From Bryum argenteum (lineage: Eukaryota > Streptophyta > Bryopsida > Bryales > Bryaceae), in NCBI GenBank assembly GCA_037043015.1, contig CM073324.1:7089013-7153012 (forward strand): a stretch of DNA of 64,000 nt. The letters run 5' to 3'. The notes beneath the pieces are model-generated. The model was given only the letters and a program-made list of their open reading frames with translations. It made no database searches and had not been told where the DNA came from. Both the position numbers and the translations under genes were made by a program. Positions 11,378 through 61,317 of this stretch are shown here, one piece after another (the stretch's first letter is position 1; the number at the start of each line of letters is the position of its first letter).

Positions 11378-11381
11378 TTAA

Positions 11382-12355
11382 CCCCTAAACGTCCCTAGTG
11401 TCGAAAAACGACATTTTGGATGAAGGGCAGAAACTTTGAAGCGCCATAACTTCTTCATCCAAACTCCGTTTTTGACGAAATCATTTGTGTTAGGTCTCAA
11501 ATCAAGTCTAGTTTATGTGGTAAAAATTTCTGACTCATAAAATAAAGTATGAATAAATGGCATGGATTTTAGTGAAGGCAGCTTTTGTTTTTGGGTTTTC
11601 AAACATTTGGCATGTTTTACCATTGCAAGCCAATTATGTGAAATCTAAAATAGTTTTTCATGAATTTTTTTTTCATAGGTTTGATATTTAGATGCATCCC
11701 AACAACTTTGTAGTTGGAAGTTTTTTGATCTAGATAACTTTGGTATTGGCTTTGCAATGATGTTTCTACGATGAAAAAAGTGAAAAAATGAATGATTTTT
11801 GAAGAGTTAGATCTCCTTCATCCACCGTTAGATTTTGACTTTATTTTTTGGGATGGATTCCAATTATAGTCTATTTTTAGTGGTAGAAACCTTGACCCAA
11901 TCGAGGATATATTGAAGAAAAGGCATGGATTTGAGTGCGAGGGGTCTAGTTTTGGTCTATTTTTCCTTTGTAAAATTTTTGGCAGTTTTCACGACTAGAA
12001 GGCTACTATTTGAGCCAAGATTTTTTTTTGATGAATTTTTTCGGTAGAAGAGTGTCTTTGAGATGAAGATGAACAACTTTCTAGTTGCTGATTTTTTGAT
12101 TGCAAATTTCATGTTGGTAGTATTTTCACTTCAAAGTGGAAATGATGGTATTTTTGTAGCCTGTTTTGCGCACTAATATGTTATGATCTCGCAATCTATG
12201 AGGTCCCATGAGTCAAGTTTTGATCCACATGATCTACTACAAGTCTATTACAAGTTTATACAGTTGAGATTTGAATAGCTTATCTTTATTTTCATCTATA
12301 TCACTTTTTTTGAAAATGAGTTTTTGGCTAAAAATACCCCAAGGACGTTTAGGGG
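11382..12355. mobile_element. TTAA-flanked DNA transposon, non-autonomous (copy a, 974 bp)
   Basis: The left end CCCCTAAACGTCC follows TTAA (11378-11381). The right end GGACGTTTAGGGG is followed by TTAT (12356-12359), a one-base change from TTAA. The terminal inverted repeat is 13 bp perfect. A subterminal hairpin, GTGTCGAAAAACGACA, lies next to the left end. It has no long ORF, so it must depend on a transposase elsewhere. It aligns end to end with the 973-bp copy at 48682. TTAA target use points to the piggyBac superfamily; the assignment is inference from ends only. Confidence 0.7.
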
Positions 12356-12359
12356 TTAT

Positions 12360-12673
12360 GGAAGAATGAAGTGTGATTTTGATCAAACTTCAAAAGCACT
12401 TGCAATGCTGGAGAAGAAGTGACAAAAGGTTGATATTACTCCATATAGCTAAAAAGGAGAGTAGAGCTCGTCAAGACTTGCACAATCTCTTTCAATTAGG
12501 AGGTCATGCAAAGGCTCAACGCAGGCTTGCTCTCTCAATTGTGGCACATGCTACTGTCGGAGCAATACAAGAAGGTAACGCTCCTAATCACACGAAACAA
12601 CTACTTTGCGATTCCTTGGAGAGTGAACTTGAAGCACGCAAAGTCTTTACAAGTATTATGTCAAAGAAGGAGG
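12360..12673 (+). other. Unassigned open frame flanking the transposon
   Basis: A plus-strand frame opening at 12373 includes LFQLGGHAKAQRRLALSIVA and is followed directly by a minisatellite. I recognise no family. Because element a sits just upstream, this may be the other half of the charged frame that ends at 11377. Confidence 0.25.
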
Positions 12674-12767
12674 TATTGACCATTCGTACGGAGGTATCGG
12701 TATCGACCATTCATAGGGAGATATTGGTATCGACCATTCATACGGAGGTATTGGTATCGACCATTCA
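12674..12767. repeat. 27-bp minisatellite, about 3.5 units
   Basis: Units start at 12674, 12701, 12728 and 12755 (partial), each like TATCGACCATTCATACGGAG followed by GTATTGG. Units differ by one to three bases. The period is a multiple of three, so the overlapping plus-strand frame stays open and yields a 9-residue repeat (VSTIHTEVL). Confidence 0.85.
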
Positions 12768-15700
12768 AATGTGAACATCATAGTTTCCACTAATCACAAC
12801 ACGTGAAATTCAGTATCGCAACTCACACAACATCTTTGGATTTTTCTTTGCTTTAGAAATAATAAATTATAAATATGAAACTAAAAATAGAATAATAATA
12901 ATAATCTAATCATAAACTACAGCACCACAAAATCACCACATTATCAAAGCAATTACATTTAATAAACACAAGTGAATGAGTGCTGCCCAAATCTGCAGCC
13001 CAAGTTGAAGCACAAGTGGCAAACTCCAAAATCAGAGTCGGTTTGAGACAGAATAATATACTGGGATGTGCACAATCAGACCAGAATTGAGTACAACAGG
13101 ACTAGAGTCAAAAACCTTCCACTTGCAAAATTGCATTCAAATTCTACAGAACCAAGCCTAATTAGCAACCTACACTAATTCTGCTAAGATCGTCCGACGG
13201 TGGCCTCCTCACTTCCTTTGAGAGAAGGGCGCCGATCAAATCCAAGCTTCTAGTTGCCTCGCGCTACGAATCAGCGCGTACTGTACTTTGCTTTGCTTTC
13301 CCTGAGTAATGAGTGCACAATGCCGCTTAGATAAAAAGTACTAGTAGTGAATGCCAATGGATAATGCATTGATTGATTCGAAGGAAAAGTTGTAATGAAT
13401 GTGATCGAAGAAGCCATGTGCAAGAGTTTATTGCAACCCTAATGAAAGAGATCGGATTTGTGCCGACTTTTCAACCGTTGGAGCAGCACCGACATGGTTA
13501 CTATCGATCTACATAGCGGTAACATACTAACATTGCGTGTTAATAGCGATTTTGTAATAACGATCGATGACCGGAAATAGCACTGAGATTGTGAAATTCT
13601 AAATTTGAATAGTGTCGTCTGAGGATTGATGCCGTTCAGTGACCTAATTTGAAGCATTTCATTGTGAACTGAGCAATCGCCCTTGTGTGATTCTTGTCTA
13701 AATCTAAACAGCAGTCTTCTGAAATCGGCTCAATGCACGTCGGAGTAGAGAAATGAGCAGATTGTATTTATAAGGATATTTTAGGTGTCGATACGTCGTG
13801 GATTACGATATGAATGATTCATTTGAAAATCTGAAGGTTCTTGATTTCGGGCAGAATGCTTGTATCAAAGCGTGCGATGACCTACGATATGATTTGATTG
13901 AATGGCTTCGGTCCAATATGAGAGGGAGCCATCGGCGAGATTCAAGTAAGGGGACGGACTGTTTTTTCGGTGCCGCGATAATCATGCGACTTGTCAACAT
14001 GTTCAGCATTCGCTATTGAGGGAAATGGAATTGTGGCTTTTCGAGGCCAAGAAGCTTGAAAGCTGGCTGATCAGTATGAAGAACATCACTTGTAGCAGGT
14101 ATGAATATTTTATATATGTGAAAACTGTAGATTTGCCATTGCTTATCTGTAAATACAGTGCTCGCGCTTTTGATCTAGGTGTTGTGGTTCGCAATTAACG
14201 TTTGTAACACTATTCAAGTGTGTAGCTCTCTGTAGGACCCTTCCGTAGCGAGATTGAAGCAAACCGAAGTCTACTTCCATGCCGACGATTTCACTTAACC
14301 CTGGTGAGCTTGATAAAAAACTGAAGTAACGTATCATTCCTTAAACGTCACAAGTTTCAAAATCCTCTGATATCCTGACCCCTCATAAGCGTGCAGTGCC
14401 TGTGAGTAAGAATCCGAGGCCGACTTAACCACTTCCTTGCTAAAGTTTTGCTGAGAGTTTGTGCTTCTGATTCACGACAGGTACATTTTGCTTCCTTCTG
14501 GATAATAGGGTTGAACAGGTGCAACCTGAAGATGCTGGTTAATGTTTTTAGTGCAGTTGTGTACTGAAGTTGTCAAGTATCCATCTCGTGAACCTCGCCA
14601 GGTACGCCTTGGGGAAGTCACACCCTGTCGTTTTAGTGAAGTAATATGAATTGTGATTGGTAATGATACATATGAATTAGGATGCATGACGTGCATGCTT
14701 TTGTCGTGTACAGTGTGTTGCCCTTTCACTGTTTGCTTTCGGACCGATTCAATCCTTCCCCATTGTGCGTAAGCTCTCCATACGAACTCTGCAGTCTAAT
14801 AATACATCGGAAACCGGACATACTACAGTAGATGCTTTACCTCTAACGTCCAAAGTCCAAAGAATGCGAATATAACTCTCATTCAGGAAATGGAGAGGAT
14901 GCTGTGTTGACCTGATTGCCTCGAGGAGCGTGCCACTGACATTAAAGTATGCAACGATGGGCCAGTAGCTGAAACATCCTACCATATATTTTTTCAGGTG
15001 CTTGGTTTTCAAGAATTTAGAATATTGTGATGGTGGCAGTAACTTGTTGCTATTGGAATAAACGAGGTGGTGTTTTTACTGTGCAAGGCTGGTGGTACGA
15101 TTACGAGTCAGCATAGAACTCTTTTTCAACGTTGAAACGAACCTTTGCTTTAAAGTGCAACGAAGAATAAGAGGAAATGATAAGCCGAAATCCTGGCTGT
15201 GGAGACCCAGGGGTTTATCTGCAGCTATCATCGGATTATTGCAGATTCCATAAGGTATTTGGTGGGAGATACTATCGCGGGTCAGAACATCTGAAGGCAG
15301 CTCTGACTTATGGATTGCAGGACCACGTGTTGAACCATGATAAAACTACAGAATCTGAAGTTTAGCTGAGACAGAATCCAGCCCCTTCGGCCTACAAGAT
15401 ACCTGCAATCTTCAACATCTGTATGCATGTCAGATGAAAATCTGTACATTCATACAATAGTCGGTGGTCAAGTGACCAGGTTTCTTTACCCAATTAGGTG
15501 AGCCGTTATCAGGGTCCTACTTCGCTGCTCTTCTCATACTAATCAAGCATCCAGATTACATGTTGATAAACACTTCAATGAAAGACGAGTCTTTATTAAA
15601 TGCAGGTGATATGTTCAAGGCACATAAGTGTACAGTGAAGAGAAATATCTCTCAGCAGCGCTTTGCGTCATTAAGATATTTCGATCCCAGGTAACTTACA

Positions 15701-15979
15701 CTACCATTCTTAAATCTTGAAAGTAAGAACCTCTCTTCAATCTATTTTACAAATGTTCAGAATTAGTAACTGGGTTCAATGTTTCCAAACAGGCACCGTG
15801 AGTGCTAATGATGTACTTGTACACCATCTCTCTTTAATGGTCGGATATAAAGCTAGCTTTATGTACATGATCAAGAGCTCGATTGGTGTTTGGGTTCTTC
15901 GAATCCCAACACTTCGGATTACTTCATTCACTTCCTGCCTCCCAGGAGGAATGCCGCAGTTATTCTATCTTAAACCATA
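12768..15979. other. Intergenic region 3' of the WRKY gene
   Basis: Several short open frames on both strands show no domain and no splice-linked coding pattern. I found no RNA gene or transposon end. The last few hundred bases before 15980 probably include the WRKY 3' UTR. Confidence 0.45.
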
Positions 15980-17646
15980 TCAAGGAGAGTCGGACTCCAT
16001 ACTGACAGACTTGTGGCCCGTGGACAAGTTGGTGTCCATGTCGAAGTCATGCCACAAGAGAGGCTCCTGGAAGGAGAGCACAGTTGAGCTTTGGGGTCCG
16101 AGGTAGGTGCCCATGGAGGCATCCCCAACTTGCTCTCGATTCTGGGAAGGACTGGTAGTTAAGTAGCTGAAGCTCGCCTCATCGTCCTCGACTATCGACC
16201 TTCCCCTCTTGTCTGGAACGATCCCCGTCCAGGCGGTTACTTCCAGATTGCTGCTATCCTCCATCTCTATTCCTGGACTCTTTCCTTCACCTGGTGCAGG
16301 TGGTGTTGCCCGTGATGATCTTCTTCGCTGCCCAGTGCTGGAGCAGCTATGCTCCCCCACATACGTCACCTCAAATACGGTGGGATCCTTATCAGTTGGC
16401 TGCACCATCTTCTTCGCACGACATTCTTTCACGCTACATTTGTAATATCCTCTGTCATACCAAACAATACTCAGCAATGAAGACTTTGGGAACGATGTGC
16501 AGGAAAGAACGAAACTCTACAAACCTGCAATGGTTGGAGTTCTGGATCGATTTGTTGCCGTATTTTTTCCAGCCTCGGTGACCGTCATCAGGAATACCTT
16601 TCTTTGAATCGTTCAGTTTTTGGAACACAACTTCGATTTTCGCTTCACCGCCACTCAACTTTCTGTCCAGAGCATGAAAAGACTCTAATCGTCAGTGCGA
16701 GAAAGAAAACGAAAAGTCAGAAATGGAGGAGTGTTCACCTGACTTCGGATTTGCGGGCTCGATGGCCGCGTTGAAGAGAAGTGGGCGGCGGCTTGTTGAT
16801 GAAGCTTCGATCCTCTGCAACGAGAATTTGGTAATGAAGATGATCTGTAACAGAGGGTACCCCGGAATTAATCTGACATGACGACGAACATTGGCGAGGA
16901 TCAGAGAGAAGAGGAGGGGATGCCTCGGGCGGTAACAGAGGCCAGTCCGAGCTATCCATGTGTAACCTTGCGAAGTTCTGTCCTTGTTGTTGATGCGAAT
17001 CTGCCCCTGCATCTCATACTCTCATCAAAACTCTCTACAATTTATTGTAGCATGCATGATTCTTGCTGCGTGATCACCCAACACCAAGCATGCAAGAGCC
17101 TGGCGGTGGTTGCGACGAGCCCAACCTTGCCAAAGACATGATCGGTTTGGCACGTCAATTCTACACCTACCAGACACACACTTTCGTAACTTGACAACAG
17201 GAATTCAAGAGTGGAGTTTCACCTAAAGGAAGCCCGGGAGTGAAGAGGACGTTGCCATGATTCCACTGCAGAGACGAAGGCTTCTTGCTCACCAATTGCT
17301 CCGGTGTTGGATCACCAGCTTTGGACAAAAGGTCATAAACGGAGCTTTCCATGGACTGCTGACCCATCTCCCGCAAGCGACACAGAGCTAACTGGCACCA
17401 GTTCATGGAGTTTTCAATCTTGGCTTTGAGAGCCCGCAGCACCGTGGGCGAAATGGAATCGAAGCTCGTGAACACCTCACTGTTGTTGATGTTGTTGTTG
17501 GTATCATCGTGATACTCCAGGGACTTGGACATGAGCAGGCCGAGAAGATCCTCCTGGTGCACTATGGCCCTGCTCAGCATCTCCTCCACTTTCTGCACAC
17601 TATGCTCCGACGCCCACAATTGCCTGAAACTCCCATTCTCCATCAC
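15980..17646 (-). CDS. WRKY transcription factor with variant heptad WKKYGNK
   Basis: DNA-binding regulator, probably nuclear; WRKY proteins bind W-box (TTGAC) sites in stress and development genes. Four exons: 17646-17223, 16814-16739, 16662-16525, 16451-15980, giving 369 aa with phases that close exactly. The WRKY domain spans residues about 192-250. The usual WRKYGQK is WKKYGNK at 198-204. Zinc ligands read C218-x4-C223-x23-H247-x1-C249. The HxC ending is group III-like but the x4 spacing is that of groups I/II. The last intron splits the Arg codon before GYYKC, the conserved R-type intron position, which supports true orthology. The N-terminal region (residues 1-140) has a helical segment, VLRALKAKIENSMNWCQLAL, resembling group III N-termini. 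The C-terminal tail is acidic and Ser-rich. Confidence 0.93.
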
Positions 17647-17967
17647 TCCCCACTCAGATCGTACCTATTCTCGAACCTCTTCCATGCCTCCGTCTATCAT
17701 CTCGGTCCTACAACAGAGGAGGTGCTTGAATTCTTGCGTTTATGCAATTCAGAGTGTCGCAATATGACCAGAGGTGTATGAAGTCGACGACTTGAGAGAT
17801 GACTCATGGGTATCTGATGGACTGGAAGAGCCCCAAGTCGGTAGAGGTCTAATTAAGTATTGGTTCTTGATGCATGAGTCAATGAAGCTTTTGATCGATG
17901 AACTGATAAGTCGTCACTCTCGCAAGCAATTGTGGACAATCATTGTGGCTGGGTCTAAAATTGAGCA

Positions 17968-22731: not shown

Positions 22732-22734
22732 TGC

Positions 22735-22996
22735 TAGCGAGCGAATTGATCGATTGTTACGATTCTGTGAGAAGGATTTGTGATTGAGGAGGTGATTGAT
22801 TCTAAAGGCGGACTCGAGGAGGTACTGCGATTCACGAGAGGAGGTAGTGCGTTGGCTTTGTCACGCGCCAGGCGTTTCGATCCTCCACTGCCCCCCATTT
22901 TGCCCACCTCTTCCGTTGTTCTCAGCCAGGGGAGCGGCACGTGGAAGCTTCCTCTCAGAGGAAAACTGAGCTATCACTTCCCTTTCTGTAGTAAAG
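22735..22996. promoter_or_regulatory. Probable promoter and leader of the oxidoreductase gene
   Basis: Short upstream region on the minus strand between the ATG at 22731 and the MITE at 22999. It contains no recognised coding sequence. Its role is inferred from position only. Confidence 0.3.
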
Positions 22997-22998
22997 TA

Positions 22999-23100
22999 CT
23001 CCCTCTGTCCCATTATGATTTTCCGGTAGGTTCTCTCAAATCTACCTCCAAAGGTAGATTTGAGAGAACCTACCAGAAAATCATAATGGGACAGAGGGAG
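22999..23100. mobile_element. Stowaway-like MITE (copy 1, 102 bp)
   Basis: Flanked by TA on both sides (22997-22998, 23101-23102). The 49-bp inverted arms start CTCCCTCTGTCCCATTATGA, have one mismatch and are separated by a 4-base loop (CCAA). CTCCCTCYGTCCC termini with TA duplications are diagnostic of Stowaway (Tc1/mariner-derived) MITEs. The element is base-for-base identical to the copy at 27695-27796. It sits upstream of the oxidoreductase gene and could form a hairpin RNA if transcribed. Confidence 0.9.
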
Positions 23101-23549
23101 TACTAAAATTTCCACTTTTCAATTCATATGAATGCTTTCTCAAACGATGAAATTCCATATAACATTTGGACATACAAACTCCAATTATATCTACTACACT
23201 CGATTAGTATGGAGTAAAAGACAAATGCTTACTGCATGCAATTCTACTACAAAACAAGACATTCAGTACAGAAGATATTCGATACAGGAAACATCCCTCA
23301 CTCACATAAGTGAATGTCAAATGAAACAGTATTTACGTAAATAAATGCAAAACGAATGTGAAGGTACAACCTTCTTACTCATTCAAAAAAATTGTAAATT
23401 CTACTCAGAAAAATCACATGAAGTGTATTGCTCTATAGCAGAGCACTAAACTGTATATGCACCACACCGACCTGATAGCCAAAAATGTACCTTATCTACA
23501 CAACAAAACTCCCGATCATGAATACCATAATCACCACCTCATTTAGTCA

Positions 23550-27490: not shown

Positions 27491-27694
27491 ACGCCGCTTC
27501 ATTCATCTTCGCCGGCGTTGGGAGGGAGTCGTGAAGGTCTGTTCTGCATCGATCGAGCAGCAGCTCGGCTCCAACTTCAGGCGTATGGAGCGTGATGTGA
27601 ATTGCTTAGATTTTAGATGTAGATAGATAGCTAGATATGTACATATTTCCCACAATGCACACTTCCACAAATGTAGATTTTCTATTAAATAATA

Positions 27695-27796
27695 CTCCCT
27701 CTGTCCCATTATGATTTTCCGGTAGGTTCTCTCAAATCTACCTCCAAAGGTAGATTTGAGAGAACCTACCAGAAAATCATAATGGGACAGAGGGAG
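27695..27796. mobile_element. Stowaway-like MITE (copy 2, 102 bp)
   Basis: TA flanks at 27693-27694 and 27797-27798. By eye it is identical over all 102 bp to the copy at 22999-23100, including the single arm mismatch and the CCAA loop. It lies about 200 bp beyond the arabinokinase fragment. Confidence 0.9.
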
Positions 27797-27974
27797 TATA
27801 AATTGTTCTTAATCTACACCATGACTACCTTCTGCAAAATCTTTGTATCAAGTACATGATTTGTGAGGAATTCTTCAAACCCTAAAGTCATGAAAATTCA
27901 ACACATGTCATGCACAATTTCAGTTTACCGTTTTACCTTATTTATCTTACCTAGGTAATTTGGCCTTATCTACA

Positions 27975-28104: not shown

Positions 28105-29749
28105 TTCAAAGTGTCGTGAGCCAAGAAAGTGACAAGAAATGGAAAAGTGTTATGCCCGGAGAAATACATCAAATTCCACATTATATATATGCCGTCAGCA
28201 GCTTAAGATTCGAACGGTGGAGGATCCGATCCGTGGCGAAACAAGCGGAATACCATCCGAGGAAAGGAAACTGGAGCAGTGGCTTCCGGCACTGGCAGTT
28301 GCATGCAATGAATTGTAGCGTTGCCATGGTGACAAGAGTGATGCTGTAGATTCATGAGATGAGATGGCAGCTCGTCCGGCGACCGCAACAATAGCTCCCA
28401 TGCTTCTCTCCATTCGCGCAACGCAACGGCTGTAAGTTGTTTGCGGAAGGCTTCACTGGTGGGGTGGAATGGCCATGCGTTTAGTGTTTGGTGCTCCGTC
28501 CATCAATCTCTTGTGTGGTGGGCCTTGTTGAGTACTACTCTCATATATGTTTCATTTCACTCTTTCATGAGTACTCATGAAAAGGAGTGTATGGGATCAC
28601 TCTAAAGTAGTGCTATCAGAATTTTTGGGGGCCAAGGGAGGGGTAAAGAGCCCCTACATTTTTAATGTTTAGGATTCATATGCCAAGGACTAAGCTTCAA
28701 GAGTAAGATGGGACTGCACGCCCCATTTTTGAATTCAAAATCATCAAAAACGGTCATCAGGGGGTCCAAATCGAAAATTCCAAGGATTTTGAAGGATTCT
28801 GATGGAGCTTCGAGAAACGCCGGTAGCACTCCGAGTGTATGTGGCACAAGAGGAAATGGGTATGATTGCATTGAAATTGGTTGAATAATATGTATGAGCA
28901 CCTTTAGCAATTATGTAAGAAATTTAATATGTACTCTCTCTATCTCATAATGTCTCATTTGTAGATTTTTGAACCTATGTAATATTTAGACATTGTAGGA
29001 CAATGAAATACATAATGTGACCGAAGAGTTTTGAAGTATAAGTCCAGAGTAAAGTGGAGTTTTTCATTTTTATTTTTTATTTTTTTACCACCTATTTTAG
29101 AGAAGATCTTTTGAGAAATATACAGAACTTTTGTTGATACATTTAGTTGATATAAGAAATTGGGTTACTTCTAGTTCTGGTTGATGCTTTGAGAGTGAAT
29201 TATTAAAATATGTGAACATATAAGCTAAACAAATATACATAACAATATCCAACTCTTAGGAGTAAGTGATTTACGCTCCAAATAATTGAAACTTAAAAAA
29301 TAGCAAGAGCATGCACAATCCACAAGGAAAGTTTTCAAACATGGTCAATATAATCAAGTTATAAAAGATTTGGAAGTTGTTTGTAGGAGCTCCAACAACA
29401 CCATCATGTTTTGAAATAGGGATTAATTTCATATTTCTTAAATTCAATCGACCATGTAATCAGCAAGGTATAATTCTAGGAGAAGAAATAATATACTGCA
29501 ATTTTGAGACGAAGATGTTGATTGATCAAAGTCAAAAAGTTGTATAATTTCTAGTAAGACCCATCTAGTGATAATAGTGTATGTAATTAATTGTCAATGC
29601 CACGTCTATATGGTCAATGCTTTTCAATTAGGTAGAATAATCGGCAAAATATATGATAAAAATTTTGCAGACCAAATATTTTCCTCTCAATATCATGTAA
29701 AATGTGGCTATTGATCCTTGGGAACCTACTCATACACTATGTTGATTTT
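28105..29749. other. Intergenic; no recognised gene
   Basis: AT-rich, with short open frames only. A diverged Stowaway-like end (TACTCTCTCTATCTCATAAT) is visible near 28931 without a clear partner. Confidence 0.4.
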
Positions 29750-30610
29750 CTTTAATTGTGTCCACAACGTCATTAGGTCTAAAAAATCAACCCTAAAAAT
29801 GCAAGGTCTTTGAGGAGTTGTATCTTCTATATCCACCGTTGAATTTCAACCTTTTTTTCTAGGTTGGAATCAACTTCAAGTCTAGTTCTTTTTGTAGGAA
29901 TCTCAATGTCATCCAATATGTTTTCAAGACACAATATGAAATATAGTACAAGAGGTTCAGATTTGGACTAGTATGTATTTGTAAAATATGAGGCAATTTT
30001 CACCATAGCAAGGCTATATTTTGAGGCAAGATTTTCAATTTTCAAACATGGGGAAGGATTTGCCATTGTGAGGCTCTTATGGAGAATCAAAAAGATGTTT
30101 TTACAAATTTTGTTTAGATTTTCATCATCTTAAAATGAAGGGCTAACAAATTTTAAGTTGGATTTGCAACAATGTTTCTATCTTGAGAAAAAGTGAATAA
30201 ATGAATGATTTCTGAGGAGCTATATCTCCTTATCTAGCGTTGGATTTTGACTTTTTTTTCGGGAATGAATTCCAAAAAAAGTCTAGTTTTTGTGGTAAAA
30301 ACCTTGACAAAATCGAAGATGTATTGAAAATAAGGCATAGATTTGAGTGCAAAGGGTTGAATTTTGGAGTATTTTACCTTTGTTAAATGTTTGGAAATTT
30401 TTACCATTGCAATGTCAATATTTGTGCAAAGAAAGGACTTTTTTTCGGAAGGACTCTTTTTTCGGAAGGACTTTTTTTTTGTTCAAGGGTGTTATTGATT
30501 AAAGTAAAGATCTTTGTAGTTGGTAATTTTTATTGCAACAAGTATACTGGTAGCATTTTCACTTCAAAGTGAACGTGTTGAGATTTTGTGATGTTTTATG
30601 AGTACTAATA
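29750..30610. mobile_element. Diverged copy of the TTAA-element interior
   Basis: Matches the interiors of the elements at 11382 and 48682. The shared marker is a 'GAGGAGCTATATCTCCTTAT'-type block followed by a GGATTTTGACTTTTTTT-type tract, present twice here (near 29810 and 30215), so this copy is internally duplicated or chimeric. It breaks off after ACTAATACCTTACGATCTTG near 30620, just where the tandem array at 30632 begins. The matching right-hand part seems to resume near 31640. Confidence 0.5.
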
Positions 30611-30631
30611 CCTTACGATCTTGCACGATTG

Positions 30632-31255
30632 CGTAATAACTTAGACAAGCAAAAGAAACCTCCGTGCAAGAATGTGACATCAACATTTGTATCATAAGTG
30701 TGCACAACCATTGGAGTCATGGGTTTTGTAAAAACTTACATGACAAAAAGAAGTGTCGGGTACAAATATGACTTCAACAGTTGTATTGCAAGTGCACACA
30801 ACATAATTGCTCAGAGTTATGGATTGCGTAATAACTTACACAAGCAAAATAAACCTTCCAAGACAAATGTGATATCAACATTTGTGTTATATGTGTAGAA
30901 GTGTCAGAGGCATGGATTGGGTAAAAACTTACACGAGAAAAAGAAGCGTCGAGTGCAAATATGACTCCAACATTTATATTGCAAATATGACTCCAATAGT
31001 TGTATTGCAAGTGCGCACAACACAAGAGCCGAGAGTCATGGCAAGTTGCGTAAAAACTTACACAAGCAAAACAAACAAATCTTTCAGGACAAATGTAACA
31101 TCAACAATTGTATCATTAGTGTACAACTGTTAGAGACATAGATTGCGTAAAAACTTACATTAGAAAATGAAGCATCGAGCACAAATATGACTTCAATAGT
31201 TGTTTTGCAAGTGCGCGCAACAAAAAATTGGAGTCATGATTGCAAAGTAGTCCTA
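30632..31255. repeat. About 200-bp tandem repeat, three units
   Basis: A GCGTAATAACTTACACAAGC-type start recurs near 30633, 30828 and 31048, each followed by GACATCAACATTTGTAT, then GTAAAAACTTACA and a CAAATATGACTTCAACAGTT block. Units differ by scattered substitutions and small indels. The array sits inside a diverged TTAA-type element. Confidence 0.7.
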
Positions 31256-31406: not shown

Positions 31407-31788
31407 CCCCTAAGAGCCTAATCAACCATTTTATGGTCGATCCCAAATTTTGAGGAGATGTAGCACACTTAAAATCTAATTTTTTGGAATTTTTTTTCTA
31501 CTTCCCAAGATTTTGGTGAATTGAGAACCACATCCAATTTACGGAACCTCGTTTGGATTTGTTCAGAAAGAGCCTTTGATTACAACTAGGGCAAGGATTC
31601 CTTAGTGTTGGAAAACTTACTATTTTGGGAAAAGAATACTATGAGGCCTCATACTCAAATTTTGATGTACAATATGTCTACTACAAGATTGCATGGTTGA
31701 GATCTGAATAACTTACCTTCGTTTTTATTTCTGACACTTTTTTGAAAATGTGTTATTTTTTCCACCAACGAGTCAAACAGTTCAAGAG
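31407..31788. mobile_element. TTAA-flanked element (copy c, 382 bp)
   Basis: TTAA at 31403-31406 and 31789-31792. The left end is CCCCTAAGAGCC. The right part, from 'GGCCTCATACTCAAATTTTG' onward, aligns with the right end of copy a. The ends are less symmetric than in other copies, so this may be a composite in which the left end belongs to one copy and the right end to the element at 29750. Confidence 0.45.
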
Positions 31789-31792
31789 TTAA

Positions 31793-32611
31793 TTCCTAAA
31801 GAGGATTGAGGCCCAATTTGAGTCGTATTGACTTTGGTCGGCTTGTGACTTATTATTTTTAGATCGTATGAAGTTCTACCCTTTTGCAGGTTGTAGAGTT
31901 TATCCATACCTTTCCAAAAAGTAATTTAATGCTTTGAAATTCCTTTTAACTCGTGAGATATTCATGGTCAAAGTTTGAGAAATCTTCCCAAAACTGCCCA
32001 AACTATAGTATATGCTCATTTATTCTAGAATTTGGCTAGAATCGATTAGAACATAAAATTTTTAAAAACGCACCAAAAATTGATCTTACTTCTTTTCAAG
32101 TTTTGTTTCTTGAACATGTAGAAAAGGTAGTCAATGATGATCTCACCGTTTGGATTTTTGATTCAATAATTTTTTCTCGCCTTTTTGATTGTTGAGAATG
32201 GGCCTTTGTGAAATATCAAACATTTCTATACTCCTTGTGAAATATCAAACATTTCTATAGGTTTTATAGGTCGCATGACAGAGAGTAAAAATTGCATAGG
32301 CATGTTCCTAACTCACTGAGGAAGAAGAAATTTAAGAGCTTCATGCCATCAAAATTGGTTCTTTTGGCCCCCAAAACATTATTTTGCCATTCTAGCAGTT
32401 TTGAGAGTCTTTGGTTGTTTTTGACGCTACTCATTTTTAGGAGTTAATAGGTTATGTTCGTTTTCATTTATGACTCTTATTTTGAAAATATGTTATTTTA
32501 ACTAAAAAATAGATTGGGACGGCCAGGGGAGTTTCAACTCAACAATTTCTGTCAAAAATCTACAATGAACGAAAAAGCTCAAACTCTTTCAAAGTTTGGG
32601 ACTTTTAGGGA
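31793..32611. mobile_element. TTAA-flanked element (copy e, 819 bp)
   Basis: Shares the TTAA at 31789-31792 with copy c and has TTAA again at 32612-32615. The left end TTCCTAAAGAGG pairs with the right end ACTTTTAGGGA. It has no ORF of note. Back-to-back arrangement with copies c and d gives a head-to-tail cluster. Confidence 0.5.
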
Positions 32612-32625: not shown

Positions 32626-32945
32626 CTCTTAAACGCCCAAGCAAGCCCGAGAGGCTGTTTTCCAACCAAATTTGCTCTATACTTCTCACTGCACTGAACT
32701 TTTCACTTGTATTTTGATATCAAACTGGTCACCTTCTTGTGATGCATTCAAAAAGTGAAATTTTACAATTCAAATCCGTGATGTTGTGCTAGGAAAAGGA
32801 TTGTGGTAAGTAGGTTGAGGTTGTACATAATCTTGCAGGAGGTTGCAAGCTCATCATTGATTGGTCCATTCATGATGCCCAAGTCCAAAAAATGCTGTAA
32901 TCCAATTTCGGGCTGCCCGTTTCAGACCCCATGGGCGATTAAGGG
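32626..32945. mobile_element. TTAA-flanked element (copy d, 320 bp)
   Basis: TTAA at 32622-32625 and 32946-32949. Termini CTCTTAAACGCCCA and TGGGCGATTAAGGG are near-perfect inverses. It is strongly similar to the outer element at 60524-61297, sharing for example AAGCAAGCCCGAG near the left end and TGATTGGTCCATTCATGATG internally. Non-coding. Confidence 0.7.
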
Positions 32946-48677: not shown

Positions 48678-48681
48678 TTAA

Positions 48682-49654
48682 CACTCAAACGCACAAGATG
48701 TCGAGAAAAACGACATTTTGGACGAAAGGTAGAAACTTTGAAGAGGCATAGCTTCTTATTTAAAAGTTTGTTTTGGACGAGTCACTTGGGTTGGGTCCCG
48801 AATCATGTCGAGATTGCGTGGTGAAATTTGCAGACTTGTGTAATGGAGTATGAATAAATGGCGGGCATTTTAGAAAAGGCAGCTCTTCTTTTTGAGTTTT
48901 CAAAAATCGGGCATGTTTTACCATTGTAAGGGAATTATGGGAAAACGAAATGGTTCTTCATGGATTTTTTTTTTACATAATCATGATTTGTAGATGAAAT
49001 TGAACGACTTTGTAGTTGGAAGATTTTTGATCCAAAAACTTTTGGTACTGGATTTTCAATGATGTTTCTACAATGGAAAAAGTGAAAAGTGGATGATTTT
49101 GAGGAGCTATAACTCCTTCATACACCATTGGATTTTAACCTTGTTTTTTGGGGTAGGTTTCAAATAGAGTATAGTTTGAGTAGCAAAAACTTTGGCCCAA
49201 TCAAAGGTGTTTTGAAGATATGGCAAGAATTTGAGTGCAAGGGGTGTGGATTTGGACCCTTATTCCTTAGTTAATATTTTGGCAGTTTTTCTCCCTTGCA
49301 AGGCTACTATTCGAGCCAAGAATTTTTTTTGATGAATTTTTTGTACAAGAGTGTTATTGAGATGAGGTTGCAAGTAGTTGGTGACTTTTTCATTGCAATA
49401 TGATTGTTGATAGCATTTTCACTTCAAAGTGAGAAAGCTAAAATTCTCTTATCTTTTTTTGAGTACTAAAATGTTATTACCGTATCTCACAATCTATGAG
49501 GCCTCATGACTCCAAATTTGATCCGGTTGGCCTACAACAATTATACTTCAAGATTGTATGGTTGAGATCTAAATAGCTTGCCTTCAAATTTATCTATGAC
49601 ACTTTGCAAAAAATTATGTTTCTAAGCTCTAGACCCCCTTCAGGCGTTCAAGGG
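48682..49654. mobile_element. TTAA-flanked DNA transposon, non-autonomous (copy b, 973 bp)
   Basis: TTAA at 48678-48681 and 49655-49658. The left end CACTCAAACGCAC and right end GGCGTTCAAGGG are diverged inverses. It is collinear with copy a at 11382 (974 bp), with shared blocks such as AAAAACGACATTTTGGA at the left and TTCACTTCAAAGTG near the right. It lacks a transposase ORF. Confidence 0.7.
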
Positions 49655-49658
49655 TTAA

Positions 49659-53700: not shown

Positions 53701-55037
53701 AGATAAGAGCTCCTGTATCGGTTACATGTGAGTGGTCAGCTGATGGCCGCTACTTCATGACAGCAACAACTGCACCACGACTTCAAGTAGACAATGGGTA
53801 AGCCAACTTTCTTTACCTCGTGTTTGACTGCTCTCATCCACATCGTACCATAAATTGAAGTCAAACTAATTCTCTCAAGTCAATAATAAAGAGCCAGATT
53901 TGGGTTGTTTTGACTCAACCAAAATGGAACTTTGACCGAATGTATTTTGAACTTTCTAGAGTCAAAATGTTCTGATAGAATAATTGGGTAGTCTTGAGCA
54001 AGGTCTTAGGGTAGTATTTCTTAAAGCAAAGTTATAAAAGAAGTGCACATTGATTTTAGGAAGGATCATTTGGAGGTTGTATTCACTACGCTTTTGGGGT
54101 TAAATTCTATATCACTGAATGTTGGTTGGATGGCCGGTCCGGAACAGGTTGACGGTCTACAAATATGATGGTACTCTTCACTATCAGAAGAAATATGACA
54201 AACTTTATCAGGTTCGTTCAGTCCGTTCTTTGATGATTTTGAAGAAAAGTTTTTTTTTGTAATGAAGACCTCAAGTTCTGGTGTTGTGTACTTTTATAGG
54301 TTGAGTGGCGCCCTGCTGCAAGTGGAGTCTATCCAGACCGACCTCCGTCTCCTGGGGCTCGGAAGCCTGAAAGCAAGGTGGAAGCATCAAAGACTGCTCA
54401 ACCCAGCACAGGTAAGACCTGCCCTTACTTGATCAAAATACTGGCTTCTTAGGAGGGCTCACAAATCCTAAACCCTAAACCGTAATGATTCATTCGATAC
54501 TTTTTTCTAGCAGTGGAGGTGAGAATGTTCATCAACAAACAGAGCTTGTACTTTCATGAACATTATTGACAAAAGCATTCATTTGAAAGCAGTGTTGTGA
54601 AAATTCTTTTACTGTAGTTCTTTATATGGATTGTTTTGTCCAGGTACTAAACCAGGAGCATATCGTCCACCACATGCTGGTCAATCAGCTGCTACAAAAG
54701 CCATGGTAATGTGAATCTTATCGAGACAGAATCTGTGTAGCATCTTGTCCTTTCTTTCTTCTCTTGCGTCTCTCATTAACATACTTCCTTTTTATGCAGT
54801 TGTTCGGACTCGATGAACCGTCGTCTAAGGCGGGAGCAGGAGGGTGAGTAGCAATGACAATTGCAAACAATCAGTTCCTATATTTGCATATACAGTTCCC
54901 AGTAATATATATTTTTCAGGCGCATGTTTGTTGATTCGTTTGAGTGAAAAATGCACAGGTCGGCTGGTCTCAGCAAAAGCGCCTTGAAGAATCAGAAACG
55001 TCGTCAAAAGAAGAAAGAGGAAGGTGGGGCATCATAA
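50783..55037 (+). CDS. Eukaryotic translation initiation factor 2A (eIF2A)
   Basis: Cytosolic WD-repeat (beta-propeller) factor that can deliver initiator tRNA to the 40S subunit in a GTP-independent way. Fourteen exons: 50783-50813, 50899-50971, 51237-51509, 52167-52353, 52445-52679, 53016-53084, 53252-53353, 53552-53592, 53664-53797, 54148-54211, 54300-54411, 54644-54705, 54800-54843, 54959-55037. They sum to 1506 nt, 501 aa, a little shorter than the usual 510-580. Diagnostic stretches are VYGYMPAKVTLFNN, FFCLAGFGNLPGDV, RAPVSVTCEWSADGRYFMTA, AYRPPHAG (446-453) and the basic LSKSALKNQKRRQKKK tail. Introns 6 and 7 carry U12-type signals. The ATG gives MATPPPLKFT, with the propeller starting about 15 residues later. 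The gene converges on the receptor kinase gene. Confidence 0.95.
53085..53251 (+). other. U12-type intron 6 of eIF2A
   Basis: The donor reads T/GTATCCTATC and the branch region TTCCTTGAC (53233-53241), with the branch A 11 nt before the AG at 53251. Both match the minor-spliceosome consensus (GTATCCTTT and TTCCTTRAC). Using this donor rather than the GT two bases upstream is the only choice that restores the conserved VYGYMPAK frame. Confidence 0.85.
53354..53551 (+). other. U12-type intron 7 of eIF2A
   Basis: The donor reads T/GTATCCTCCT and the branch motif GGCCTTAACG (core CCTTAAC, 53534-53540), with the branch A 12 nt before the acceptor AG at 53550-53551. Splicing gives NPQGSFFCLAGFGNLPG, the conserved eIF2A sequence. 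It is the second consecutive minor-type intron. Confidence 0.85.
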
Positions 55038-56721
55038 ACTGGCTAATTTTTATGTTAGTAGCTAATTTATACATTGCTTAGTTTGAGGGTAGTGTGCCTC
55101 ATTGAACTCAAGTTGTGCACTGAAGGGCCACTCATAGCGCTTAATGCCACCTCAGCTTATTGTTGACTCGTGCGGCTAAATTGGTCTTCAAGGATTTGTA
55201 CCTCTCAAGTAAAATTTCACTTTTTGAATGCATCATAAGAAGGTGACCAATTTGAGAAGTTGAGTACAATGAGAGCTATAGAGAAAATTTTGTCGGAAGA
55301 TTTTGTTGGAATCAAGCCCCTCACGCTTACTTGGGTGTTTAAGGGTTTAACTATAAGCTAGTTGTCTTGGTCCTCAAAGGCTTTAGAAGAGGTGATTGAA
55401 TATGTGAATGGTGTATTATAGTTGAAAGGAGTTCCTTAAAGTTTCTGCATTGTCAAGTATAACTTTGCTGCAAGTTGGTATCAAGTTAAATGCTTAAACT
55501 TTTAAATCATTACACTTGTACTATGAATTTGAAATAATAAAATCGAACTATGTATAGATTGAAAAGTTCATGCTCATCCAATCCAATATGAAGGATTCAC
55601 ATAACAAAAGTAGAAATATCACTGCTTAATCCTACACTGTACACACCCAACACTATGTTCAATTGCCTTCCATAATGGAGACAATCAAAATGCCATGATT
55701 TAAAGTGTTCAAATCCAATGAATTTGGAGATAGAATGATATAAATAGTGAAAAGACTGTAATCACATATGACATGTCTTTTTGAACACTTCACTTTGATT
55801 GCAATGAACTCATAAACAATACAAACCATTTTCAGAAAACATATTCCATCTCTAAAGAACCAAATCTAATCAACAATAATCATGTCAAAAAATGGTGGCT
55901 TTAATCAATAGAGATTACAAAGAACTCTTAAAGTCCTAATTTATGCACATTGCTAGGCTATTATGAACTCCAAAAAAGAAAAAAGTAGAAAAACTTTTGA
56001 AAATACCCTCATAGACTACTAGTAGGTATCATACTTCCAAGCCATGTAACAAATTAAAATTTGCCCATCTCAACTAACTTAGCAATGCTATAAACACCCA
56101 AGCTACCAAAAAGCCAAAGCTCACCACATGGTGAACCTCTCCTTAATCAGTATGTACCTACAATCACAAAACAACATCACAACTTTAAATCATACTCACA
56201 AACAAAACATCAGATATACAAAGACCCCATTCTTTGGTGCAGTCAAATTACTCTTATTCTTTATCAACAAGTACCAACCATAAATAATTGTATTCAATTC
56301 AACAACACAAATATATTCATATCAACATACAGGATTCTAAAATGTTACAAGGAAGTACATTTCACTGTCCCCGTCCCGTTGGGCTCCTCATCCTTAAAAG
56401 GATAATTCATACATAACGTCTCTCTCATTCTTATTGGTAAATTGAAAACTCCTGTTCTTATTATGTACTAACTTTGCATCTTCAAAAGTTCAATAAGGAA
56501 CTCTTCCGTTCTTTCAAGTGAGAATCCTTCTCCATAAAATGCACATAACTCATATGATAACACTTTTTTCTATGAAAACATCCTGTTATCCTTATACATA
56601 CTGATATCAACAAAATCTGAATCTTTCTGGCAAGTTCCGATATACTGATCAGAGCATGCAAGGATACTCTTTGGCATTTGCCAACAACAAAGGGCTGGTT
56701 CTGTGCAGGCAATACCTTAAA
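55038..56721. other. Intergenic between converging genes; nothing recognised
   Basis: Includes the 3' UTRs of the eIF2A and receptor kinase genes. AT-rich, with no open frame, repeat or transposon end that I can support. Confidence 0.45.
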
Positions 56722-59700
56722 TTATCCGCTACCAAGTCCATAGCAGCTACCAATGGAGGGAGTTTGGCCTTCAGACACGAAGCTGCCACGGGAGGAGGAA
56801 GTGGGGCTGTTGATCATGCTTGTGGTGAGAGGCACTCGAGCACTCCCGTCCAGAATGCGGCGAACCTCGCCCATTGTGGGCCGCAGATCGGGAAGAATCC
56901 TGGTGCATAGAAGAGCAATCTGTGCACATAATGTCACTTGTCTCTTGTCGAACACTCCTCGTAGGCGTGAGTCTACGTACTCTGTTGGGTCCTCCGCTTT
57001 TGCTAGCGTTTGAATGATTGTAAACAGTTGCGCTTTACCTGCACACACCATCGCAATGCTTCAGGCACACTAACCCATGATTAAGAAGGATTACTGGAGA
57101 GAGGCAAAATTCTGATGTATCAGAGCACACAGCAGTTGACCTCAAACTGGCCGGTGCAAGGGAGGACAGAAAGATGGTGGAAGATATGAGGAAGGAAAGA
57201 TTGTGGATTGAAGAGTAGAAAGAAAGTTTGGCTATTGCAACGGAGGAAGGAAATATGGTGGATTCAAGAGTGGAAAGTGAAACTGGCTGGTGCAAGGGAG
57301 GGAAGGAAACATGGTGGATTGATGAGTAGAAAGTGTGACACGATTTCGGAGGAAGAGGGAAAGTAGTGTAGATCATGTTGCTTATGACAAGATTGAGTAA
57401 TTTGACATTAAAAAGTACAACTGATTGCACACTCTCGATGTCAGGTTATGGATTGGCGTGCGATTCGTTACAGAGATACCTCGATGAAAAAGAAGGAAAA
57501 GAGGGTGGATTCGGGGAGTAAAAAGTGAGTTAAGGGAAGGAACCTATTTGGCTGATTATCTGAATGGCTAAAGAATGCGGAACAATCTCAGTTCATATTA
57601 CTCTATCTCGAAACGGCACATATGTTGAACAAAATTGAGGTTCGGTCAAGATTAGAAATTCTGATAACAGTTTAAACGAGGGTTTAAGAGAGGCATGAAA
57701 ACTTACATTGTGATTCAAGCACCTGTCGACCCTGAATGAGAACCAGCAGAAGCATACCGAAGCTGAAGATGTCACTTTTATCAGTAAGCTTCCCCGTGAG
57801 AGCATAATCCGGGTCCAAGAACATCTGCTGCTCACCAATTCCACTTTTCCCAAGACCAAAGTCACCGAGGCGAGCAGTGAAGTTCCGATCCAGAAGAATA
57901 TTACTCGGCTTCACGTCCTTATGCACAATTCGCGGGGAACAATGCTCATGCAAGTACTCCAAAGCACAAGCAGTCGCAAGCGCAACACTGTATCTTCGAC
58001 TCCATGGCATCAAATGGCCGTCTTCACTCATAAGCGCATCCATAACCGAGCCATTCGGCATATACTCATAAACAAGCAACCGCTCCGAGCCTCGAGTCTC
58101 TTTACAGTAGCCTCGCAGTGGCACCAAATTCGGATGCTGCACAGATCCCAGGATAAGAACCTCCTTCCAAAAATCAGAATCGACAACCTCTCCTGCTTTT
58201 ACAAGCTGCTTGATCGCCATGGAGGTTCCGTTTGCGAGCCTGGCTTGGTACACTGAGCCTGAGGCTCCACAGCCGAGTAATCGATTATCATGAAACTTGT
58301 TTGTTGCTTCTTCAAGCTCCTGGTAAGTGTAGAGTTTGCACTCTATTGATTGGATCTTCGAACGAGGAATTGCAGGTTGCTTTTTCGGTTTTCTTCGCCA
58401 GCAACAGAATATGGTGATGAGAAAAGTGAAGAGGATGAGAGTGAAGGGGATGACGCCGACGAGAATGTACAGTATGATTGGGTGCTGACGAACCCATGAT
58501 GGGCATTCGGGAAGGTGCAGTGTTGTTACGTTGTGGCAATCTTTAACGGAACGCATGTTGGGAAGTAGTGAACATGCTCCGGAGTCTGAGAAGCAATTCT
58601 CGTCCCAGTTTTGGTCTTGCATTTCGATTCGAGGGAGGGTTTCGTTGAAGTAGTTGGACGAGAAGTCGAGACGGGACATGTTTGGGAAGCCATCGAAGAG
58701 TTGCTTTGCTACCTCGCCTACCAGTCGATTCTCGTGTAAATCCCTGCCAACGTATTCGACACCAGAGATTTAATATTACAAGGTCAGTATATGATTGTAA
58801 GCTGGAAGCTGGTTGCATCGAGAACACTTACAGGGACAGCAGATTCGACAGGCCTCCGAGGATGAAGGGTATCACTCCGGTGAGGTTGCTATGAGACAAA
58901 TCCCTACAATCACGAATCGAATCAACACACGAAGAACTCCAGGCCTCAGAGTGATCAGAATTTTCTTTTAGTATATTTCTGTCTACAGCAAAACCTTGAA
59001 TGTCCTTGAACTTTTATGCATATGGGACATAACACCAATGCTGAATGACTACCAACTCATATAAGAATGAACAATGCACATATTCCTAAGACAATAGACA
59101 TGCAAGTCCTTACAATCACTACAACAATTAGAAAGAACTAAAGGCAGAAAAACTCCACACCTCTCTATGTACCTAGAGTGGTTAGCGTAATCATTTAACC
59201 TATTTTTGTATCCATCTGCCCACAAAAAAATCTCGAATATTCTTAGATGTTTATGCACACAAGATATATCACCCATGATGAAAGACTACTGACCAATAAA
59301 CAAAAGTGCACAGAGATGTACTCCAAAATGGGGTAACATGCAAAGAGGTGAACTATACATGTAATATGTCTGAGCCTACAAAATTAACGATCTGTACAGG
59401 CAAATAGCTTACAATGCGGTGACTTTGCAAGAAGCGTTCCCGATCATACACGGTTTCGGAAGTGTGATGTCGTCTTTGAGCGCACAAGTGATGCCAGGCC
59501 ACGGTCCATAGCAAGCATCCACAGTATCAGTCCAGCGGCTCACTTTATTATTCGGTCTCCTCCAGATATCCTTCAGTTGGGCCAACACAGCAGCTGCAGT
59601 ACCAATTCCACAAAAAAAACATCAGGCAATCCATCACCGCATTGAGCATGCTTACTTATCAATGTGGTGGCCACTGATCAACACAAACGAACAAGGGTAA

Positions 59701-59798
59701 AGCTCGGATACTCTACCTTCTTGAGGAGTGGCAGAAACCGCAGCAGCTTGAAAAAGAAAACCAAAAACCAGAAGAATGTGCCACGACCACCCTGGCAT
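56722..59798 (-). CDS. Leucine-rich-repeat receptor-like kinase with short ectodomain
   Basis: Plasma-membrane receptor-like kinase; the ligand is unknown. Five exons: 59798-59717, 59593-59413, 58903-58832, 58743-57707, 57038-56722, 562 aa, all phases consistent. A signal peptide covers residues about 1-24 (SWHILLVFGFLFQAAAVSA). An LRR N-cap with DACYGPWPGITC follows, then only about two to three LRRs (LDLSHSNLTGVIPFILGGLS, LDLHENRLVGEV, MSRLDFSSNYF). The TM helix is at about 199-225. The kinase has GCGASGSV loop 268-275, Lys289 and HKDVKPSNILLD (385-396). HKD replaces the usual HRD. DFG is at 405-407, but only about 12 residues separate it from LDPDY, where RLKs usually have about 24. This shortening lies inside one exon, so it is not a splicing error. 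A C-terminal Ser/Thr-rich tail follows. Confidence 0.92.
57140..57350. repeat. Purine-rich degenerate tandem repeat in the receptor kinase intron
   Basis: About 60-65 bp units built from GGAAGGAAATATGGTGGATT, AGAGTGGAAAGTG and CTGGCTGGTGCAAGGGAGG recur three to four times within the last intron (57039-57706). Units are diverged by scattered changes. Confidence 0.7.
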
Positions 59799-60519
59799 TC
59801 TGCCACATCTGGAGCTCCAATGGCGCCCAAATGGAAAAATGAGCCGCTTCTTGAACTAAGGACTAATACTACGCGCCCTCCAGCGAACCTTCGCCATAGT
59901 CACAGACCTAAGTCAGTTAATCCGCAAACCTGCAAGATTACAACGCTGCTGCTAGTGCTGATTACTGGGGTCTTCGTCGTCGTCGTCGTCTTCACCATAG
60001 CCGAGAGAGAGGTTGTAACGGGAGACTGCAATGCGACCTAGCTAGAGCATTGCCTTGGCTTGCCTTGCTTGCCTGACAGTTCCTGAAGGATCACTGCACA
60101 TGTGCAGAAGCTCGCCATTCCCGAGGGTGGTGGGCTGCAGGGATCTGGAGAGTTTGAGTGGCGGAAACGGGGATTAGTGGGGTGATTAGTAAGTGATTAG
60201 TGAGTGATTAGTGAGTGGGGTTAGTGATGTAGGTGGGAGTTGGAATCTGAGGAGGCCAAATATAGTCTGGTGGCCATTATGGCCCTCTGGCCTTTTTTAA
60301 ACTCCGGCACGTCATCAATTCAATTGGGGCCTTTTGGAATTTGGCCTCTCTCTCCCCTTTTAACTGTTGTTGGTCAACTTGACCATTCTCTCTTTTGGGA
60401 ACTCCTTGGGGAACAATTTGAATTTCAATTTTCTGGGAGCCCCTGTAACCGTCACTTGCTTGAGACTTTTTTAAAAAAAATTGCAAAGATTGTGTTTGTG
60501 GATATCTATATATAATATA
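59799..60519 (-). promoter_or_regulatory. Leader/promoter region of the receptor kinase gene
   Basis: No conserved coding sequence. Contains a GTC/CTT-rich stretch near 59970-59990 and a short repeat of GTGATTAGTGA near 60175-60225. Assigned by position upstream of the ATG at 59798. Confidence 0.3.
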
Positions 60520-60523
60520 TTAA

Positions 60524-61297
60524 CCCTTAAACGCCCAAGCAAGCCCGAGGGGCTTGATTCCAACAGAATCTTCCGTGTGGCTCTCACTGTACTCAACTTT
60601 TCACTTATATTTCCTTAACCCCTAAACGCCCAAGGGGGGGGTAAAGCTCCTAACAATTGGTAATAATGCTGATTTTTTCAAAACTGCGTAAAAACAAATA
60701 AAAGATGAAAATGGAAAATCCAACCGTAGGATCTTCTTTGGAGCATGGCAATTAGTATGACCACCAAGTTGCATGCCATTTGGAGGTATGGATTTCAAGA
60801 TCCATGCAAAAAAGGGGTGAAGATCACACCACCAAAACTTTCATGAAAAATCTCTTTCGCCCACTCTCACAAATTGAGGATCAAGGTTTTTACTATTTAT
60901 CCAAGGAGGGAGTAGAGTAAACCCACCGAGGAGTTGAGCAAAAAAAACGGCGGATGAAAAATCAATGGGATGAAAGCGGGGTTCTGCACCAAAGACGGAG
61001 CCTCACATCCAAAATGTCGAAAAACGACACCGTGGGCGCTTAAGGGTTAAGATGCATTCAAAAAGTGAAATTTCACAATTCAAATCACAATTTGTACGAG
61101 TGATTTTGTGCTTTGAAAGGATTGTGATAGGTAGGTTGGGGTTGTACATAACCTTGTAGGAGGTTGCAAGCTCATCATTGATTGGTCCATTCATGATGCC
61201 CAAGTTCAAAAAGTGCACTATTCATGATGCCCAAGTCCAAAAGATGTTGTGATCCAATTTTGGGCTGCCCGTTTTAGACCCCATGGGCGTTTAAGGG
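60524..61297. mobile_element. TTAA-flanked element (copy f), interrupted by copy g
   Basis: TTAA at 60520-60523 and 61298-61301. Termini CCCTTAAACGCCCA and TGGGCGTTTAAGGG are perfect 14-bp inverses. Without the 428-bp insertion and its extra TTAA the element is 342 bp, near the 320 bp of its relative at 32626. Internal blocks such as AAGCAAGCCCGAG and TGATTGGTCCATTCATGATG are shared with that copy. Non-coding. Confidence 0.75.
60619..61046. mobile_element. TTAA-flanked element (copy g, 428 bp) nested in copy f
   Basis: TTAA at 60615-60618 and 61047-61050. Termini CCCCTAAACGCCCA and TGGGCGCTTAAGGG are inverses with two mismatches. Its right subterminal hairpin (TGTCGAAAAACGACA) is the same motif found at the left end of copies a and b. 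Nesting within a relative shows at least two rounds of activity. Confidence 0.75.
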
Positions 61298-61317
61298 TTA
61301 AGAAGTTACATAAGGGT

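What the first reader, a model, noticed from the sequence alone, without database searches (positions are those of the whole stretch)
11378..61301. A TTAA-targeting transposon family (piggyBac-like ends) in a land plant
Seven elements (11382-12355, 31407-31788, 31793-32611, 32626-32945, 48682-49654, 60524-61297, 60619-61046) have CCCYTAAACG-type inverted ends. Thirteen of the 14 flanks are exact TTAA and the last is TTAT. That is far beyond chance and is the signature of piggyBac target use. To my knowledge piggyBac is well known in animals and some algae but poorly documented in land plants. All copies are non-coding, so an autonomous source would have to exist elsewhere.
Basis: partly seen in the sequence, partly recalled or inferred. 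Interest (0 to 1): 0.8.

Follow-up and report, generated by a model that had tools for sequence, protein, structure and literature searches.

The report
piggyBac-like miniature transposons in a plant
This stretch of plant DNA holds at least five short mobile elements, without a gene of their own as far as tested, whose ends and TTAA landing sites look like those of the animal jumping gene piggyBac, a kind seldom described in plants, but the enzyme that moved them was not found.

Summary
Five elements (E1 11382-12355, E4 32626-32945, E5 48682-49654, E6 60524-61297, E7 60619-61046) carry CCCYTAAACG-type inverted ends. A leave-one-element-out profile of the tips that ignores TTAA ranks all 10 ends within the top 14 of 127,960 positions; 9 of 10 abut TTAA, one TTAT (P about 3e-21). 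E2 and E3 are weak: two of their four tips rank far down, the other two lie in the background range, and they share one TTAA. I add a partial copy (E8, 55209-55347) and a degraded one (about 61323-61874). E7 sits inside E6; relatives E4 and E8 lack it, and the comparison is consistent with a single four-base target (TTGT/TTAT there, TTAA in E6), though E6 lacks 20 bp nearby. No longer duplication flanks any of seven elements. C-rich tips contradict Kolobok, another TTAA user. Best reading: non-autonomous piggyBac-superfamily elements. Membership is unproven: no plant genome was held and no transposase family matched 114 window ORFs. A 2023 review already lists PiggyBac among angiosperm MITE superfamilies, so this is a new member of a known kind.

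The parts
11382..12355 (+). E1, 974-bp element; TTAA 11378-11381 left, TTAT 12356-12359 right
   Evidence: 76% identical to E5 over 913 alignment columns
48682..49654 (+). E5, 973-bp sister of E1; TTAA at 48678-48681 and 49655-49658
   Evidence: K2P 0.29 to E1, differences 77/72/82 by codon phase
32626..32945 (+). E4, 320-bp element; TTAA at both sides
60524..61297 (+). E6, sister of E4 (K2P 0.13) carrying E7 inside it; TTAA at both sides
60619..61046 (-). E7, 428-bp element nested in E6, TTAA on both sides; its right end carries the left-type module of E1/E5, so it lies inverted
55209..55347 (-). E8, partial E4/E6-type copy with the left end only; TTAA displaced by one A from the tip; second relative that lacks E7
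31407..31788 (+). E2, weak element: left tip in the background range of the profile but next to TTAA; right end supported by collinearity with E1's right end
31793..32611 (+). E3, doubtful: left tip not above background; right subterminal region resembles E1's but predicts an end near 32529, not 32611
61323..61874 (+). E10, degraded relative of E2's left half; flanks TCAA and TCAT
   Evidence: right tip ranks 12 in the full profile
29795..30625 (+). internal fragment related to the E1/E5 body, no end recognised

Best explanation
These are non-autonomous (MITE-like) DNA transposons of the piggyBac superfamily in a land plant, moved in trans by a piggyBac-type transposase encoded elsewhere. The enzyme would recognise a 16-22 bp C-rich tip plus different subterminal modules on the left and right, cut the element out, and join it to a TTAA that ends up on both sides. 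Shown: shared tips, TTAA flanks, unrelated bodies carrying the same end modules, nesting, and no longer flanking duplication. Consistent with the data but not proved: a single TTAA at the target. Inferred: the enzyme's identity, cut-and-paste movement, precise excision.
For: The leave-one-element-out profile without TTAA recovers all 10 ends at ranks 1-14 of 127,960; 9 of 10 have TTAA (P 3e-21 with the window frequency, 2.4e-19 with a local frequency). In seven elements no perfect direct repeat of 2-12 bp lies outside TTAA (best 3 of 4, at E2). With E7 removed and one TTAA kept, E6 aligns to E4 and E8, which lack E7, with TTAA opposite TTGT and TTAT and the right side continuous. Bodies of E1, E6 and E7 share nothing significant, yet the right-type tips of E1, E4, E6 and E7 agree at 16-21 of 22 positions and the left-type ends of E1 and E7 at 29 of 40. 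piggyBac TIRs are generally 12-19 bp with a CC[C/T]T tip and TTAA; the coral transposon AmiPB2 has left TIR CCCTTTAACGCCC, one base from CCCTTAAACGCCC here, and coral TTAA MITEs include a CCCCT tip (PMC2872659, passages). CCCTT is called the most conserved piggyBac tip in another survey (PMC10813416, passages).
Against: No transposase: none of the 22 Pfam families matched by 114 stop-to-stop ORFs of 88 aa or more is a transposase (shorter or broken pieces were not scanned), and the host genome could not be searched. Only 5 of 10 strong tips begin CCCT; three begin CCCCT, one CTCTT, one CACTC. The nested-site comparison uses paralogues that read TTGT or TTAT, not TTAA, and E6 lacks 20 bp starting three bases left of the site, so the left side is poorly anchored. 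E5's ends are diverged: 13-16 of 22 to the other right tips, 19-20 of 40 to the other left-type ends without gaps. Two ends supported by collinearity or profile lack TTAA (32529, flank AGTT; 61874, flank TCAT).
Confidence: 0.7

Rival explanations
1. Tc1/mariner-type elements with a 2-bp TA duplication and tips ACCCYTAAACG, which prefer TA inside TTAA.
For: A TA duplication inside TTAA cannot be told from TTAA by flanks alone; two Stowaway-like hairpins lie in the same window.
Against: The outermost T of TTAA is present at 9 of 10 strong ends; a TA-user without further preference would have T about 30% of the time (base counts). The tips do not resemble the Stowaway tip CTCCCTC (name recalled; sequence).
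Confidence: 0.1
2. A transposon superfamily not yet recognised in plants, or Sola3, that also targets TTAA.
For: No transposase identified. Subterminal palindromes are frequent: 9 of 12 ends have a stem of 5 bp or more in the first 50 bases, against 30% of random 50-mers of the window (several of the 12 ends are related, so the independent number is smaller).
Against: Tips match piggyBac tips closely. Sola3's use of TTAA is recalled; the paper opened for it (PMC5199201, passages) did not show its target in the text.
Confidence: 0.13
3. Kolobok superfamily, which also duplicates TTAA.
For: Same target sequence (PMC9587614, passages; PMC6004289, passages).
Against: Kolobok termini are 5'-RR and YY-3'; all ten strong tips here begin with C. 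Among plants that paper lists only chlorophytes and rhodophytes.
Confidence: 0.03
4. PIF/Harbinger (Tourist-like) elements misread, with 3-bp TTA/TAA duplications.
For: TTAA contains both TTA and TAA; Tourist-like elements are common in plants (PMC12550479, passages).
Against: With symmetric tips the two flanks read TTA on one side and TAA on the other, which is not a direct repeat; only tips that differ by one base between the two ends would rescue it.
Confidence: 0.04

Closest known systems
Coral CMITEs and AmiPB piggyBac-like transposons (PMC2872659, passages)
   Same: TTAA flanks, short C-rich TIRs (CCCTTTAACGCCC in AmiPB2; CCCCT tip in CMITE family III), MITEs consistent with piggyBac hallmarks
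   Different: CMITEs are about 100 bp in an animal; here 320-974 bp in a plant and no autonomous partner found
piggyBac superfamily transposons of animals (PMC10813416, passages)
   Same: TTAA duplication, most TIRs under 20 bp, CCCTT the most conserved tip
   Different: those encode transposases of about 500 aa or more; none found here
Angiosperm PiggyBac MITEs as listed in PMC10004981 (passages)
   Same: the class to which this set would belong
   Different: the passages I saw give no sequences or species for them
Kolobok T2-MITEs of Xenopus (PMC6004289, passages)
   Same: TTAA target, MITE form
   Different: tips AGGRR rather than CCC

Membership tests
piggyBac superfamily | TTAA target-site duplication | tested here: met
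   9 of 10 strong ends TTAA, 1 TTAT; nested-site comparison for E7 consistent with one four-base site, but with TTGT/TTAT in the relatives and a 20-bp gap nearby
piggyBac superfamily | 12-19 bp TIR with CC[C/T]T tip | tested here: inconclusive
   5 of 10 strong tips CCCT, 3 CCCC, 1 CTCT, 1 CACT; a CCCCT tip occurs in a TTAA coral MITE
piggyBac superfamily | DDD transposase (Pfam DDE_Tnp_1_7) with these ends | not testable with these tools
   no host genome held; none among Pfam matches of 114 window ORFs
piggyBac superfamily | precise excision without footprint | not testable with these tools
   needs orthologous or population data
Kolobok | termini 5'-RR...YY-3' | tested here: not met
   all 10 strong tips start with C; criterion
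PIF/Harbinger | 3-bp TTA/TAA direct repeat | tested here: not met
   with symmetric tips, TTA on one side and TAA on the other
hAT, Mutator | 8- or 9-bp direct repeat (lengths recalled) | tested here: not met
   outside TTAA at most 2 of 8 or 4 of 9 positions agree in seven elements
Tc1/mariner | 2-bp TA duplication | tested here: inconclusive
   TA lies inside TTAA; the conserved outer T argues against

The most novel reading that the evidence does not exclude
The plant genome holds, or recently held, an autonomous piggyBac lineage whose ends CCCYTAAACGCCC mobilised several unrelated bodies. Such elements would be generally overlooked because plant MITE pipelines sort by other duplications; the near identity to a coral tip would make horizontal arrival worth testing.
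Probability: 0.3. Interest if true: 0.65.

Novelty: new member of a known kind. Interest (0 to 1): 0.42.

Why it matters
If confirmed with a transposase, it would add well-defined land-plant elements to a superfamily known mainly from animals, and suggest that TTAA-flanked elements are missed or misfiled in plant annotation (inference): a 2025 survey of 207 plant genomes sorts MITEs into five superfamilies plus Micron, with neither the word piggyBac nor TTAA in its text (PMC12550479; counts, passages). A native plant piggyBac could also bear on the use of piggyBac as a plant genome-editing tool.

Tried and rejected
Other target duplications (2-12 bp outside TTAA): no perfect repeat in seven elements. 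Coding relics: in five stretches translated in six frames (E1, E5, E6 with E7, the E2/E3 region, and 29700-30700) stops abound and the longest open stretch is 82 codons; E4 and E8 were not translated; E1/E5 differences are 77/72/82 by codon phase. Copies elsewhere: exact 18-, 18- and 21-base end patterns in viral contigs gave 0 hits, exact 22- and 23-base patterns in genome contigs gave 0. These are collections of viruses and prokaryotes, so this says little about plants. A 20-base pattern gave one IMG/VR contig, L001, in which a 23-base palindrome holding the same core stands four times within about 180 bases; I take it as coincidence and did not look at its genes. End sequences in paper text: 0 papers for six strings. 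Empty sites for other elements: among joined flanks of nine intervals (seven elements, E2+E3 together, and E10 taken from 61325, two bases inside its tip), only E7 gave a non-self match across the junction.

Full report
The question.

Checking the observation. Reading the sequence and listing each end gives the stated flanks: 13 of 14 TTAA, one TTAT. To avoid circularity I searched for the ends without TTAA. With at most one mismatch to CCCYTAAACG there are 12 sites in the window: 8 abut TTAA, one TTAT, one (E8) has TTAA one base away, and two (14338, 28086) are unrelated. A 16-base profile from the ten ends of E1, E4, E5, E6 and E7, with the element under test left out each time, ranks all ten ends 1-14 of 127,960 positions. 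With TTAA at 260 of about 64,000 positions, 9 of 10 by chance has P about 3e-21; with a local frequency around E1, E4, E5 and E6 it is 2.4e-19. These P-values apply to ends I judged solid; the unbiased figure is the 8 of 12 above. TTAA-bounded inverted repeats exceed all 100 shuffles at each of four settings, most clearly at 12 bp with 2 mismatches: 6 against a mean of 0.2; those six include cross-pairs of the nested elements and one unrelated pair.

What does not hold. E2 and E3 are weak. E2's right tip ranks 2585 and E3's left tip 9521; E2's left (14) and E3's right (21) stand among unrelated sites of like score; and E2 and E3 share one TTAA. E2's right end falls where collinearity with E1's right region predicts, which saves it in part. 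The same reasoning puts E3's right end near 32529, next to AGTT, not at 32611. A degraded relative at about 61323-61874 has TCAA and TCAT flanks.

Target duplication. No perfect direct repeat of 2-12 bp lies outside TTAA in any of seven elements; the best is 3 of 4 at E2. E7 is inserted in E6; E4 and E8 are relatives of E6 without it. Removing E7 with one TTAA kept gives ...TCCTTAAGATGCATTC, which lies opposite ...TTCTTGTGATGCATTC in E4 and ...TTCTTATGATGCATTC in E8; in a search with joined flanks the match runs across the junction to both. The right side is firm. The left side is not: E6 lacks 20 bp that E4 has, starting three bases left of the site. So the data exclude a long duplication and are consistent with a single four-base target, but they do not prove it; the relatives read TTGT and TTAT and are paralogues. 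A TA duplication inside TTAA cannot be excluded by flanks alone, but the outer T is kept at 9 of 10 ends.

Anatomy and likely working. Three bodies (those of E1, E6 and E7) show no significant similarity to each other but share tips: right-type ends of E1, E4, E6 and E7 agree at 16-21 of 22 positions, and the left-type ends of E1 and E7 at 29 of 40, including a TGTCG-N5-CGACA palindrome 17 bases from the tip. E5 is more diverged (13-16 of 22 on the right, 19-20 of 40 on the left, ungapped). Sharing of ends by unrelated bodies is what trans-mobilisation by one transposase, or by related ones, predicts. Short palindromes near the tips are frequent, 9 of 12 ends with a stem of 5 bp or more against 30% of random 50-mers, but several of these ends are related. 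E1 and E5 differ by K2P 0.29, E4 and E6 by 0.13; with the nesting this suggests more than one period of activity. The five stretches translated are full of stops, and none of the 22 Pfam families matched by 114 ORFs is a transposase.

Comparison. piggyBac elements generally have 12-19 bp TIRs with a CC[C/T]T tip and TTAA (PMC2872659, passages); CCCTT is the most conserved tip in another survey (PMC10813416, passages). The coral transposon AmiPB2 has left TIR CCCTTTAACGCCC, one base from the E6 tip. Kolobok, another TTAA user, has RR...YY termini (PMC9587614, passages), which the tips here contradict. The piggyBac tip criterion is met strictly by 5 of 10 ends; three are CCCCT, which a TTAA MITE family in coral also has.

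Print status. A 2008 grapevine paper says that only five superfamilies had been described in plants (PMC2528002, passage). A switchgrass BAC-end survey found no PiggyBac (PMC3325252, passage), and a Stipa genome table lists one 75-bp PiggyBac match (PMC8319324, passage). Against novelty, a 2023 review lists PiggyBac among seven angiosperm MITE superfamilies (PMC10004981, passages), a 2024 review names it among class II superfamilies when speaking of plants (PMC10794571, passages), and a 2015 survey lists PiggyBac as present in all its groups (PMC4438587, passages). The 2025 survey of 207 plant genomes uses five superfamilies plus Micron (PMC12550479, passages). One paper search used six end strings and found 0 papers; the nine others were by topic, of which I saw listings and opened 13 papers as passages; PMC9860276 and PMC5199201 added nothing decisive. 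The library holds open-licence papers only, and the P-MITE paper was not held.

Host. A WRKY domain, a U5 snRNA gene and a GT47 gene fit a land plant. CACTAnTAGAAAA-type ends at about 2060-2405 and Stowaway-like hairpins suggest a grass; that association is recalled, not tested.

Verdict. A real set of TTAA-flanked, apparently non-autonomous elements, most likely of the piggyBac superfamily, in a plant. Membership awaits the transposase and orthologous empty sites.

Noticed in passing
22995-23104 and 27687-27804: Two near-perfect Stowaway-like hairpin elements (98% and 95% complementary arms, 4 nt between the arms) with almost the same sequence.
   Followed up: no
2060-2405: Inverted and direct copies of a CACTAATAGAAAATGGCACTAAAAGTG-type end, CACTA-transposon-like (label recalled), with two right-end copies in a row.
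   Followed up: no
3308-3420: U5 spliceosomal RNA gene on the + strand, 93.1 bits against a gathering score of 40.
   Followed up: no
30627-31240: Degenerate direct repeats just left of E2, with motifs such as GCGTAAAAACTTACA and ATGACTCCAAC.
   Followed up: no
11382-12355: E1 carries an internal direct duplication of about 300 bp (65% identical), and related units recur at 29795-30625.
   Followed up: partly
11399-11413 and 61015-61029: The palindrome TGTCG-N5-CGACA has an A5 loop in E1 and, read from the tip, a T5 loop in E7, as if the loop had been flipped.
   Followed up: no
L001:482-660: A 183,567-bp IMG/VR contig has four copies of AAAATGTCGAAAAACGACATTTT within about 180 bases, the first sharing 20 bases with the E1 left end; probably coincidence.
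   Followed up: partly
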